Below, piece after piece: positions 57,337 through 59,979 of a stretch of DNA of 64,000 bases (position 1 is the stretch's first letter; each line of letters opens with the position of its first letter). The position numbers and the translations under genes were made by a program. The stretch comes from Allorhizobium ampelinum S4. GTDB taxonomy: Bacteria > Pseudomonadota > Alphaproteobacteria > Rhizobiales > Rhizobiaceae. A model generated the notes under the pieces. The model was given only the letters and a program-made list of their open reading frames with translations. It did no database searches and was not told the DNA's origin. Where the stretch lies: NCBI RefSeq assembly GCF_000016285.1, contig NC_011989.1, positions 1,367,001-1,431,000 of the forward strand. Reading direction: 5' to 3'.

Positions 57337-57367
57337 GGGAAAAATGGTGGGCGATGAGAGACTCGAA
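57337..57367. repeat. Left att copy: 3' end of tRNA-Val
   Basis: 31 bp identical to 59896-59926: GGGAAAAATGG, TGGGCGATGAGAG, ACTCGAA. It contains the complement of the tRNA-Val 3' end (CCA, acceptor strand, part of the T arm) without the rest of the gene. Confidence 0.92.
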
Positions 57368-57597
57368 AACTCGGATATCTCGAAATTTACGCCGTCAAGT
57401 AATTGAATAAAAAAATAAAATTAAATTAGTATAATATAAATTGTGACCATGTGACGATCGAAAATTTGTGACCAGGGTCCGTCGCAGAAGTTCGTGTCAC
57501 TACCAGATTTGTTAAAATTCTTCCTAATTTAAAAACGAAGCGCTGATCCACATCAGTTAATGAGCGGGCATTCTTTGCCAGGAAATAGGAGGTCTTT
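57368..57597. other. A/T-rich left end of the tRNA-Val element
   Basis: 230 bp, strongly A/T-rich around 57400-57440. No gene. An AGGAGGT site at its end serves the small ORF at 57598. Confidence 0.45.
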
Positions 57598-57759
57598 ATG
57601 AAGACGTGGCAAGTGTTTCTCGGTCTACTGGTTTTTGCTCTCGCGATTCTCTGGTATGTTGGTGCTCCGTGGTGGGGATTTGCCGCAATTGGTGCTGTTA
57701 TTGTTGTTCTTTTTGTCGTGATGTTTTGGCAGAAGCGTGCGGCGATGAAACAAATGTGA
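57598..57759 (+). CDS. 53-residue two-helix membrane protein, unknown
   Basis: Starts MKTWQVFLGLLVFALAILWY, then VGAPWWG, a second helix (FAAIGAVIVVLFVVMFW) and a basic tail QKRAAMKQM. The ATG has a near-perfect AGGAGGT 5 nt upstream, which makes real translation likely despite the small size. Inner-membrane hairpin topology is expected. It lies inside the element, convergent with the HEPN-like gene 17 bp away. Small membrane proteins occur in phage-defence cassettes and holin-like modules; no function can be assigned. Confidence 0.7.
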   Translation: MKTWQVFLGLLVFALAILWYVGAPWWGFAAIGAVIVVLFVVMFWQKRAAMKQM

Positions 57760-57776
57760 GGACAATGCCACTTCGA

Positions 57777-58649
57777 TTAGCTCAAAGGGGCGCTCTGGTC
57801 GTAAAGTTGATCTGTTATCTCGGCCTCCCGTTGGGTGCCAAGCAATGCCCTTTCCCAAAATTCGTTTGCTTCGTCCTCAAATTCTTCCTCCAATCGCTGC
57901 AAGTCCGGGCTGTAGCCAGCAATAGCGACGTTGGCAACCTCCACAATCTTGCAGGCATCATCGACCAACCGGAACAGGTGGTTATAGATCACCTTCCACT
58001 CTGCAGGCTTGATGGAGGAATGAGCTATGGCGGTGTCTCTCATCTTCTTGAGTTCGCCGAGACCTGACCGCCCAAACCTTCCACGATACAGATTCCCATA
58101 GCCTTCGACTGCTAGCCCTATCGCTTTCTCACAGTCGGCAGCATACAGCCGTTTGCTACATTCATCGTGCGTCGGATGCCAACTGCGGGCTCTCTCTATC
58201 AGGGCGTCCCGGCATCGTTTCTGCCGCAGCAGTCGGATCATGAGCGGTATCGAGGCTTCATCTCGCGCGTTTGGGTGCCTGCCTACGTATTCAAGCTTCC
58301 CGGACTTTCGATTGCAATAGCGCACAGGGCGGGCATCAAATAGGCGAGCAAGGTGTAGGGCTAGGTCAAAGCCGAGGCTCGCTTTGATAACGTTATAGGC
58401 TCGCGCGCCGGGAAACTCCCGGTCCTGCATCTCGCCGACGATCTTGTTTCCGGCCTCTAACGTGGCCTCTATGCGCAACGCCTGTTCTATGTTCGCCCGG
58501 ATCAACGGCATCATCTTAATCAGTCGATCAAGGGCCTCACTGGTTTTAAGTACAACAGGCTTCTTTCGCCGCATTGGCTTTCTAGGCTTCTGTGTCTGTC
58601 CTTTGGTCAAGGCAGTTACTTCATCTGTTCGAGAAGCACCGTCGCGCAT
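57777..58649 (-). CDS. HEPN-domain protein, AbiU2-like
   Basis: 290-residue all-helical protein. After a basic start (KPRKPMRRKK) come helices with LGFDLALHLARLFDARP and SIPLMIRLLRQ, then the HEPN active-site pattern R204-D-T-A-I-A-H210 (R-x5-H) in KKMRDTAIAHSS. The arrangement resembles the AbiU2-type HEPN family, whose relatives act in abortive infection or as toxin RNases. RNase activity is inferred from R-x4-6-H, not proven. The ATG at 58649 overlaps the upstream exported-protein gene by 34 bp, so the two are likely one operon. A later in-frame ATG at 58574 is an alternative start. Confidence 0.7.
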   Translation of the reverse strand: MRDGASRTDEVTALTKGQTQKPRKPMRRKKPVVLKTSEALDRLIKMMPLIRANIEQALRIEATLEAGNKIVGEMQDREFPGARAYNVIKASLGFDLALHLARLFDARPVRYCNRKSGKLEYVGRHPNARDEASIPLMIRLLRQKRCRDALIERARSWHPTHDECSKRLYAADCEKAIGLAVEGYGNLYRGRFGRSGLGELKKMRDTAIAHSSIKPAEWKVIYNHLFRLVDDACKIVEVANVAIAGYSPDLQRLEEEFEDEANEFWERALLGTQREAEITDQLYDQSAPLS

Positions 58650-59308
58650 TGAGCGAAGCCCTCTACTGCTTCGTCGTTGCGTGTCCTTTTGCCCGTTTCA
58701 TCGGTTTGCGCCACGTCAAGCTCAAGGGGCAACTGAATATCGCTCGGGCCGCCCTTTTTGTTGAAGGCGACCGTGATCTTCTTTGACTCTAGGGCGGCGA
58801 GAACAATCTCAGCGGTTGGAGATGATTGGAACACGCTAAACAGACTGCCTGGAGTGTCGGACTCGTCGGCGCTGACAAGGCTATCTACGTTCGTCTCAAA
58901 CTTCGAACCGATGAGGTAGGCCCGCGATGGCGGGGATGGATTAAAACTAAGGCTGGGCGGGGTGATCTCGTTGACGACTACTTTGAGCACCGCTCCAAGC
59001 TTGTCCCCAATACCCATGATGCCAATGCTGCCGTCCACCTTGATAAACTGCCCTTGGCGATAGGTGTAGTCGCGGATCCTTGCCTCGAACACGAGGTTGC
59101 AGCCTGCTAGCTTGCCGCCCGTCATGTAGGGCTGTGCGAAGACGCGCTGTGTTCCGGCTATCTTCGACATCATGACTTCCAGAAGCTCTTTCTCATTAAC
59201 CTGAGCCGAGGCCGGGACGATGCTAAGTAAGGACAAAATCCACGCGCCAGCCAGCCGGACGAACTGTCGAGCCGTGAAGCGCGCTAGGGCGCGATAATCG
59301 AATTGCAT
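58616..59308 (-). CDS. Exported protein of unknown family
   Basis: 230 residues with a signal peptide: basic MQFDYRALARFTARQFVR, hydrophobic LAGAWILSLLSIVPA, cleavage probably after ASA. The mature part (VNEKELLEVMMSKIAGTQRVFAQPY...) is beta-rich, with two cysteines (in AGCNLVF and FAQCATV) that could pair, and no membrane anchor. The ATG at 59308 has AGGGGAAAC upstream; a longer frame to 59476 has no site. I recognise no family. It is periplasmic and precedes and overlaps the HEPN-like gene. Confidence 0.75.
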   Translation of the reverse strand: MQFDYRALARFTARQFVRLAGAWILSLLSIVPASAQVNEKELLEVMMSKIAGTQRVFAQPYMTGGKLAGCNLVFEARIRDYTYRQGQFIKVDGSIGIMGIGDKLGAVLKVVVNEITPPSLSFNPSPPSRAYLIGSKFETNVDSLVSADESDTPGSLFSVFQSSPTAEIVLAALESKKITVAFNKKGGPSDIQLPLELDVAQTDETGKRTRNDEAVEGFAQCATVLLEQMK

Positions 59309-59564
59309 TGATAGTTTCCCCTGCCTACGCGCGATTGTGCATGCGTCTGTAGGTATAGACAAGAAAAAACCCGCCGAGAGTGTCGGGGCCGCGCCTAGAG
59401 CGCACTCATATTCCACCTTGCAAACTTGGCCCGCACCTGCGGCTTCGTGCGCCCCGCAAACGTTCTGCTTGATCAAGATTAACGCTCAATCGCGCGTAAG
59501 CCGGGTTTTGCCGCATTATTTCAACATCAAAGTCGGTTTGGCTCTGGTAGCCGCGAACAACGAT
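59309..59564. other. Short non-coding gap between exported-protein gene and integrase stump
   Basis: 256 bp with no gene seen; should hold the promoter of the exported-protein/HEPN operon and the scar of the integrase deletion. Confidence 0.4.
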
Positions 59565-59837
59565 TTACTGAATGGTTAGCGGGTAGGGCGCTTCCTGCGG
59601 TTGTTGACCAGTTGCTGCCTCATGCTTCTGGCGAGCGATGCCGATTTGCAGCTGGATGGAAGCGACCGCTGCGGCCTGATTGCGAATGGCTGTCCGCCGA
59701 TCACCGCCAAGCTGAATTTCGAGTTCTGCTCGATTGTCGAGATATGGTCGAAGTTGGGGAGGGATGACGACTCGGGCCGAATACCTGCCGTTACGTTCTT
59801 TCCAGTGCTGAGGCTTGCCAGCCATTAGAAAACCCAT
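59565..59837 (-). pseudogene. Integrase N-terminal fragment
   Basis: 90 codons matching the start of alphaproteobacterial phage integrases (WKERNGRYSARVVIPPQLRPYLDNRAELEIQLGGDRRTA, the DUF6538-like arm domain), then an ending (EAPYPLTIQ) and stop. The core-binding and catalytic domains, normally about 250-300 residues more, are absent. Its 5' end lies 66 bp from the tRNA-Val 3' end, as for a functional island integrase. Confidence 0.85.
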
Positions 59838-59895
59838 TTTGTGACGCGATTTGTGACAAACACCTTAGCGCAATGTCATTCTAATGATTTCAATG

Positions 59896-59926
59896 GGGAA
59901 AAATGGTGGGCGATGAGAGACTCGAA
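59896..59926. repeat. Right att copy, overlapping the tRNA-Val 3' end
   Basis: Identical to 57337-57367. Covers the CCA, acceptor 3' strand and part of the T arm of the intact tRNA-Val. Confidence 0.92.
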
Positions 59927-59979
59927 CTCCCGACATCCTCGGTGTAAACGAGGCGCTCTACCAACTGAGCTAATCGCCC
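59904..59979 (-). tRNA. tRNA-Val (anticodon TAC)
   Basis: 76 nt on the minus strand: acceptor GGGCGAT pairs with ATCGCCC, D arm TAGCTCAGTTGGTAGAGC, anticodon stem CCTCG/CGAGG around TTTACAC giving TAC, T arm GGGAGTTCGAGTCTCTC, discriminator A and encoded CCA. Target of the 2.6-kb element. Confidence 0.97.

What the first reader, a model, noticed from the sequence alone, without database searches (positions are those of the whole stretch)
57337..59926. 2.6-kb remnant element in tRNA-Val carrying a HEPN/AbiU2-like cassette
The 31-bp direct repeats, the intact tRNA and the integrase stump prove past integration. What remains after loss of the integrase is just three genes, one with an R-x5-H HEPN motif. 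Retention of these while mobility was lost suggests they are useful to the host, as expected for a phage-defence cassette. This is my best candidate for an undescribed system.
Basis: partly seen in the sequence, partly recalled or inferred. Interest (0 to 1): 0.75.

Follow-up and report, generated by a model that had tools for sequence, protein, structure and literature searches.

The report
Gutted prophage keeping its cargo genes
This 2.6-kb stretch looks like what is left of a bacterial virus that once integrated next to a tRNA gene and then lost nearly all of its own genes, keeping an RNA-cutting protein of a known phage-defence family and an undescribed exported protein, each of which was also found elsewhere without the other.

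Summary
Perfect 31-bp direct repeats (57337-57367, 59896-59926) flank 2.5 kb beside an intact tRNA-Val. A same-species genome shows the empty site with one repeat copy.

The ancestor can be named. Congeners G056 and G014 carry ~18-kb prophage-type elements in the same tRNA-Val, with the same 22-nt att core at both ends. Both ends of the window element match that family. Integrase homology ends at 59454 and a module known from other phage contigs begins at 59452, so one internal deletion probably removed the structural genes.

The cargo left is HEPN (PF18734 HEPN_AbiU2, 94 bits, RDTAIAH), an exported protein (EXP) and a 53-aa membrane ORF.

EXP and HEPN are not a conserved pair within these searches: 0 of 6 other EXP loci has an AbiU2-type protein, and 0 of 17 other AbiU2-type loci has EXP (most AbiU2 flanks are short). 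The cargo end of G014's element holds a GmrSD_N gene plus another HEPN; G042's corresponding interval holds type I-E cas genes.

Best reading: a gutted prophage whose terminal cargo holds a solo AbiU2-type RNase. Neither defence nor host benefit is shown. No structure could be predicted.

The parts
57337..57367 (+). distal direct repeat (attR core), 31 bp
   Evidence: 100% identical to 59896-59926; single copy in empty sites
57368..57472 (.). phage-side attR sequence, non-coding (57368-57600 is 36% GC)
   Evidence: 57341-57472 is 81% identical over 135 aligned positions to the attR side of the G056 element (L078:13605-13738), 27 of them core, so roughly 76% outside the core; GC
57598..57759 (+). 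TM53, 53-aa hydrophobic small ORF, probably membrane-bound (by eye)
   Evidence: AGGAGGT ribosome site; found only in the own genome among 62 genus genomes; no relative in viral contigs; only weak family matches
57777..58649 (-). HEPN_AbiU2 protein, up to 290 aa, RDTAIAH motif; start codon uncertain
   Evidence: PF18734 94.3 bits, E 8.7e-27; about 35% identity to a Mesorhizobium ciceri plasmid protein with RDDHVAH
58616..59308 (-). EXP, 230-aa protein with a signal-peptide-like N-terminus (by eye) and two invariant cysteines; overlaps the HEPN ORF by 34 nt
   Evidence: no Pfam match above cut-off and no PADLOC, NCBIfam or PHROG match (queried with one extra leading residue); 80% identical relative in a viral contig; invariant C70 and C221
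59250..59452 (-). prophage leader module: 3' end of a phage gene, upstream region, ribosome site and first ~21 codons (MQFDYRA...), now heading EXP
   Evidence: 59277-59452 is 78% identical to L033; 59250-59444 is 83% identical to viral contig L065
59454..59837 (-). integrase remnant: first ~128 of 524 codons, TAA after codon 90
59896..59926 (+). tRNA-side direct repeat (attL core), 31 bp, overlapping the 3' end of tRNA-Val
59904..59979 (-). intact tRNA-Val (anticodon tac), the integration target

Best explanation
The element is a gutted prophage. A prophage of an ~18-kb tailed-phage type integrated by site-specific recombination at the 3' end of tRNA-Val (shown by att repeats, empty sites and sibling elements). 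One internal deletion then joined integrase codon ~128 to the phage's last module and removed portal, capsid, terminase and tail genes (inferred from the exact abutment of two homologies). What remains is the cargo end next to attR, with EXP and HEPN on one strand behind a phage-derived leader (leader homology shown; its promoter activity and co-transcription inferred). HEPN is most likely a solo AbiU2-type, metal-independent RNase that cuts RNA when a phage infects and stops the infected cell from producing phage (inferred from family and motif). EXP is most likely an independent cargo ('moron') protein acting in the periplasm and not part of the HEPN mechanism (contexts shown, location inferred). 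The element can no longer excise itself (inferred from the broken integrase).
For: Repeats and tRNA. Empty site with exactly one 31-nt copy in same-species G485 (98% and 100% identity of the flanks), and in G436, G012, G015 and G033. Sibling elements in G056 and G014 with the identical 22-nt core at both ends, 18.0 and 18.4 kb apart. In G056, portal, terminase and tail genes by Pfam: (G014's structural genes were judged only by ORF similarity). Gene order attL-int-structural-cargo-attR in G056 agrees with the window. Both ends of the remnant match the family. Junction 59454/59452. EXP beside an integrase and portal gene (L063), inside a prophage on the strand opposite the phage genes (L018/L080), and in an integrase/resolvase island (L034). 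HEPN family. Cargo elsewhere: GmrSD_N + HEPN_RiboL-PSP in G014; type I-E cas genes in G042.
Against: HEPN had no relative in phages or viral contigs and only one, at 34%, in plasmids, so its arrival with the prophage, rather than by later insertion, is not shown. PADLOC recognises none of the four ORFs. A consensus scan found no sigma-70-like promoter in the leader and no terminator in the element. Lactococcal AbiU2 did not inhibit E. coli growth in a published screen (passage of PMC3985639). Two of 6 other EXP loci (Phyllobacterium) show no phage genes nearby by annotation or by eye. The cargo of sibling G056 matches no family searched. In G042 no distal att core was found within 4 mismatches in the 17.5 kb read. 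No structure was obtained.
Confidence: 0.68

Rival explanations
1. EXP and HEPN form one defence or toxin-antitoxin-like unit, with EXP sensing phage at the envelope and HEPN as cytoplasmic effector, translationally coupled through the 34-nt overlap.
For: Same strand with overlapping ORFs; EXP homologues recur near defence-type genes: 36 nt after an HsdR-like gene (by eye) in Rhizobium chutanense and in an island with a PDC-S20-type ATPase.
Against: 0 of 6 other EXP loci has an AbiU2-type protein and 0 of 17 other AbiU2-type loci has EXP. EXP carries a phage leader here and lies among phage genes in 2 of the 6 other loci.
Confidence: 0.12
2. The element is a small cargo island that never was a full prophage and is moved in trans by related integrases (a mini-element).
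For: Both att copies are perfect, and related integrases without internal stops exist in congeners G056 and G014.
Against: A degraded integrase fragment abuts a phage module, and phage-side attR sequence is present. The own genome shows no intact relative of this integrase; its only other match is a 30-aa C-terminal tail that recurs in several genomes. HEPN was found nowhere else in the genus genomes searched.
Confidence: 0.08
3. HEPN is not an anti-phage effector but a decaying gene or an RNase with a phage-internal role such as host take-over.
For: No close relatives; two other PF18734 proteins in the genome have no R-x(4-6)-H motif at the expected place; lactococcal AbiU2 did not inhibit E. 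coli growth.
Against: The ORF spans the whole Pfam profile with its motif; AbiU2 and other HEPN families are linked to Abi and R-M systems (passages of PMC3710099).
Confidence: 0.15

Closest known systems
HEPN_AbiU2 family (Pfam PF18734), including lactococcal AbiU2
   Same: Profile match over positions 3-193 of 193 and an R-x5-H motif
   Different: No R-M or Sel1-repeat gene was seen beside it (contexts that PMC3710099 lists for AbiU2; by eye); abiU1 was not compared; it lies in a tRNA-Val prophage remnant of an alphaproteobacterium
Prophage cargo hotspots carrying anti-phage systems (P2-like phages, P4-like satellites; PMC9122126, abstract and section 12 read)
   Same: One end or locus of an integrated element carrying different defence-type genes in different strains
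   Different: Other element family (DUF6538-type integrase, tRNA-Val target), only four members seen, and here the prophage core is gone
GmrSD_N (DUF262) gene with a HEPN_RiboL-PSP neighbour; PADLOC NsnA and PD-T4-2_A
   Same: Sits at the attR end of a sibling element and also includes a HEPN protein. PD-T4-2 itself is a published defence: its deletion raised T4 plaquing (passage of PMC9519451)
   Different: Different HEPN family and a different partner; PADLOC recognises only the GmrSD_N protein of the pair

Membership tests
HEPN_AbiU2 (PF18734) | Profile score above the curated cut-off | tested here: met
   94.3 bits against 26.8
HEPN_AbiU2 (PF18734) | R-x(4-6)-H catalytic motif | tested here: met
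   RDTAIAH; RD and AH kept in the two aligned relatives
HEPN_AbiU2 (PF18734) | HEPN fold | not tested
   No structure job for HEPN was sent; the machine answered busy to all 17 requests made for EXP (first, last)
AbiU two-gene system (abiU1 + abiU2) | abiU1-like partner gene | tested here: inconclusive
   No PADLOC family for any of the four ORFs; I did not compare directly with abiU1
AbiU two-gene system (abiU1 + abiU2) | Abortive infection phenotype | not testable with these tools
   Needs plating assays
tRNA-Val prophage family of this genus | Same att core at both ends in tRNA-Val | tested here: met
   Window, G056 and G014
tRNA-Val prophage family of this genus | Cognate integrase | tested here: met
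   Remnant only: 77% identical over residues 1-128 of 524, with one TAA
tRNA-Val prophage family of this genus | Structural genes present (intact prophage) | tested here: not met
   Besides the stump, the only ORFs between the repeats that I judge to be genes are EXP, HEPN and TM53, none with a phage structural family; hence a remnant, not a prophage
Prophage defence hotspot | Different defence genes in one position across members | tested here: inconclusive
   Four members: AbiU2 (window), GmrSD_N+HEPN (G014), type I-E cas (G042, distal att not found), two ORFs without a family (G056)
Conserved EXP-HEPN two-gene system | Pair conserved as neighbours elsewhere | tested here: not met
   0 of 6 EXP loci and 0 of 17 AbiU2-type loci outside the window

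The most novel reading that the evidence does not exclude
The attR end of this tRNA-Val prophage family is a dedicated exchange slot for defence modules (AbiU2, GmrSD+HEPN, CRISPR-Cas I-E). After the prophage core is lost the slot persists as a minimal defence island, and EXP is a new family of prophage-encoded periplasmic exclusion proteins that blocks superinfection while HEPN acts as the inner layer.
Probability: 0.15. Interest if true: 0.62.

Novelty: new member of a known kind. Interest (0 to 1): 0.4.

Why it matters
It shows, with sibling elements and the empty site, how a prophage can shrink to little more than its cargo, which would make a defence-type gene look chromosomal. It points to a cargo end in a prophage family of this genus where defence modules could be looked for. 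It also identifies an exported protein family without an entry in the four protein-family libraries searched, found so far in prophages, islands and a few other places.

Tried and rejected
EXP-HEPN as a conserved pair: rejected within these searches. Mini-element moved in trans: unlikely. A small mobile insert bounded by the 22-nt inverted repeats 59319-59340/59484-59505: dropped, because the right arm lies inside integrase homology (down to 59454) and the left arm inside the phage leader. An EXP-like hit in viral contig L065 (41% over 39 aa, E 0.007) was not found by the EXP profile. Direct HEPN searches gave nothing in viral contigs, phages or named genomes. EXP gave nothing in phages. DNA of the element had no match in plasmids or phages. 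An exact leader pattern found nothing in viral contigs; a shorter pattern over the gene start found L065. Sequence search of solved structures with EXP found nothing, and with HEPN only a chance-level hit. The promoter scan was no better than shuffles (2 found, 1.8 expected) and no terminator was found (3.0 expected). For dN/dS, NG86 returned no dS and YN00 failed, so I counted codons. Literature: 'HEPN_AbiU2' found no paper; 'AbiU2'+'HEPN' found two; the original AbiU paper is not held. EXP has no name by which to search, so I make no claim about print. Structure prediction of EXP was tried 17 times and always answered busy. My own small AbiU2 profile scored several Pfam-recognised loci weakly (L037, L043, L044, L045, L048), so it is less sensitive than Pfam's; the other EXP loci themselves were not scanned with Pfam for AbiU2. 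Of the 17 AbiU2-type loci, L050 and L051 are below Pfam's cut-off and L016 was placed by similarity to HEPN only.
Full report
OBSERVATION. The window has perfect 31-bp direct repeats at 57337-57367 and 59896-59926. The right copy overlaps the 3' end of an intact tRNA-Val at 59904-59979 minus. A 22-nt core with up to three mismatches occurs only twice in the window, with 0.00 expected. Between the repeats lie an integrase stump (59565-59837 minus), EXP (58616-59308 minus), HEPN (57777-58649 minus) and a 53-aa hydrophobic ORF (57598-57759 plus).

EMPTY SITE. The same-species genome G485 matches the left flank up to 57367 at 98% and the right flank from 59896 at 100%, and the two matches overlap by exactly 31 nt, i.e. 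one repeat copy. G436, G012, G015 and G033 show the same uninterrupted site. Of 12 congeners looked at, 5 are empty, 3 (G042, G014, G056) carry a related element, and 4 (G011, G026, G057, G437) were too diverged or rearranged to decide. One congener (G055) has a contig of the same length as, and the same EXP match as, UCMW01000003.1, titled 'Rhizobiales bacterium isolate R1607_A'.

WHAT THE ANCESTOR WAS. Congeners G042, G056 and G014 have long relatives of the stump beside the same tRNA-Val. In G056 and G014 the identical 22-nt core recurs 18.0 and 18.4 kb away in the same orientation. The G056 element holds portal, terminase and tail genes by Pfam; that of G014 was judged by ORF similarity to G056, and only its integrase and cargo-end proteins were searched. 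The order in G056 is attL, integrase, portal and head-type genes, terminase, tail, cargo, attR. The window's distal side, 57341-57472, is 81% identical over 135 positions to the attR side of G056; 27 of these are core, leaving roughly 76% outside it. The G014 attR matches 48 bp at 94%, most of it core. Both ends of the remnant therefore belong to this family. G042's integrase ORF has its last ~28 residues replaced by a tail that recurs at many places in the genus, as expected of an insertion sequence, and no distal att core was found within 4 mismatches in the 17.5 kb read.

HOW IT SHRANK. Integrase homology runs, with one stop after codon 90, to about residue 128 at 59454. From 59452 on, the sequence matches other phage contigs: 59277-59452 is 78% identical to L033, a stretch of G050 with terminase and tail-measure genes, and 59250-59444 is 83% identical to viral contig L065. 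In both, this stretch holds the end of one gene, the region before the next gene, and that gene's first ~21 codons. In the window those codons head EXP. A single deletion between the integrase and the terminal module is the simplest reading; it is inferred, not observed. A consensus scan saw no sigma-70-like promoter in the leader, so promoter activity is an inference too.

CARGO. HEPN matches PF18734 HEPN_AbiU2 with 94.3 bits over nearly the whole profile and has RDTAIAH. Its closest relative found, on a Mesorhizobium ciceri plasmid, is about 35% identical and has RDDHVAH; there it follows a PIN-domain gene and a small hypothetical gene. Direct searches found no relative other than the window's own gene in 100 relatives, 337 class genomes, phages, viral contigs or named genomes. 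The Pfam family itself occurs in 15 of 289 class genomes including the own one, 13 of them over the cut-off, and in 1 of 63 genus genomes, the own one, with three copies. EXP has no family above cut-off in Pfam and none in PADLOC, NCBIfam or PHROGs. Its relatives lie: in L063, 80% identical, beside an integrase (DUF6538 domain) and a portal gene; in a Pseudochrobactrum plasmid prophage, on the strand opposite the phage genes; in an island of G055 with resolvase, integrase and a PDC-S20-type ATPase; in Rhizobium chutanense, 36 nt after an HsdR-like gene (named by eye); and in two Phyllobacterium loci without phage genes nearby by annotation or by eye. In whole genomes EXP was found in 2 of 150 relatives (own and G055) and in 1 of 337 class genomes (own). 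Over 194 codons shared with L063, 74 are identical, 87 differ silently and 33 change the residue; 52 of 82 fourfold sites differ. dN is 0.095; dS was not returned, probably saturated. EXP thus looks to be under purifying selection as a family. HEPN could not be tested in this way.

THE PAIR. Profiles of both proteins, built in the box, were run over six-frame translations of the EXP and AbiU2 loci. Of 6 independent EXP loci outside the window (L017, L018, L034=L062, L060, L061, L063; 3.8-6 kb flanks) none has an AbiU2-type protein. Of 17 AbiU2-type loci outside the window (L016, L037, L039-L053) none has EXP. L016 has 5 kb on each side, the others about 1.5 kb or less, so a more distant neighbour could be missed; two of them (L050, L051) are below Pfam's cut-off. 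My AbiU2 profile scored some Pfam-recognised loci weakly, so it could miss a remote one near EXP. The pair is not conserved within these limits.

CARGO END. At the attR end of the G014 element lie a GmrSD_N gene (PADLOC NsnA 206 bits, PD-T4-2_A 106 bits) and a HEPN_RiboL-PSP protein, which PADLOC does not recognise. PMC3710099 lists RiboL-PSP-HEPN in operons with ParB, and AbiU2 in R-M operons and with a Sel1-repeat gene (passages). Deleting PD-T4-2 raised T4 plaquing in its native strain (passage of PMC9519451). In G042 the interval between the capsid ORF and the chromosomal flank holds type I-E cas genes. In G056 the cargo end holds two ORFs without a family. This resembles the prophage and satellite hotspots of PMC9122126 (abstract and section 12 read). 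With four cases it is a lead, not a proof.

MECHANISM. Shown: integration, homology of both ends, HEPN family and motif, phage origin of the leader. Inferred: one deletion; co-expression; RNase action on infection. The record of AbiU2 is mixed: the 2014 AbiE paper reports that among the lactococcal two-component Abi proteins it expressed in E. coli, AbiU2 included, only AbiEii inhibited growth (passage of PMC3985639). That fits either a conditional effector or no effect.

VERDICT. The remnant and the HEPN call stand. The 'undescribed two-gene system' and 'useful to the host' are not supported. What is new is the ancestry, the EXP family and the hint of a defence slot.

Noticed in passing
L019:8535-15351 (G042:C2, same tRNA-Val region): Type I-E cas genes (Cas3, Cas8e, Cas11e, Cas7e) lie between phage head genes and the chromosomal flank in a congener; Cas8e and Cas3 each appear as two ORFs.
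   Followed up: partly
L079:1677-3753 (G014): GmrSD_N gene followed by a HEPN_RiboL-PSP gene at the attR end of an 18-kb prophage-type element.
   Followed up: partly
L078:14018-15618 (G056): Two overlapping ORFs (373 and 160 aa) without a Pfam or PADLOC family at the attR end of a sibling prophage.
   Followed up: no
G000:C6:21352-21969 and C6:576932-577330 (L052, L053): Two further HEPN_AbiU2 proteins in the same genome without an R-x(4-6)-H motif at the expected place (they read SHIAH/SHLAH), while the other 62 genus genomes searched have no PF18734 protein.
   Followed up: no
L060:5905-7762 (Rhizobium chutanense): EXP relative 36 nt after a type I restriction-like gene set (by eye), with a nucleotidyltransferase gene and a tRNA-Gln nearby.
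   Followed up: partly
window 59250-59452; L033:6780-6953; L065:10038-10230: A conserved phage leader with a shared MQFxYRA start followed by different proteins, as if exchanged between prophage cargo genes.
   Followed up: partly
L034:3223-4758 (G055): KAP-type ATPase (named by eye) matching PADLOC candidate PDC-S20 near an EXP relative.
   Followed up: no
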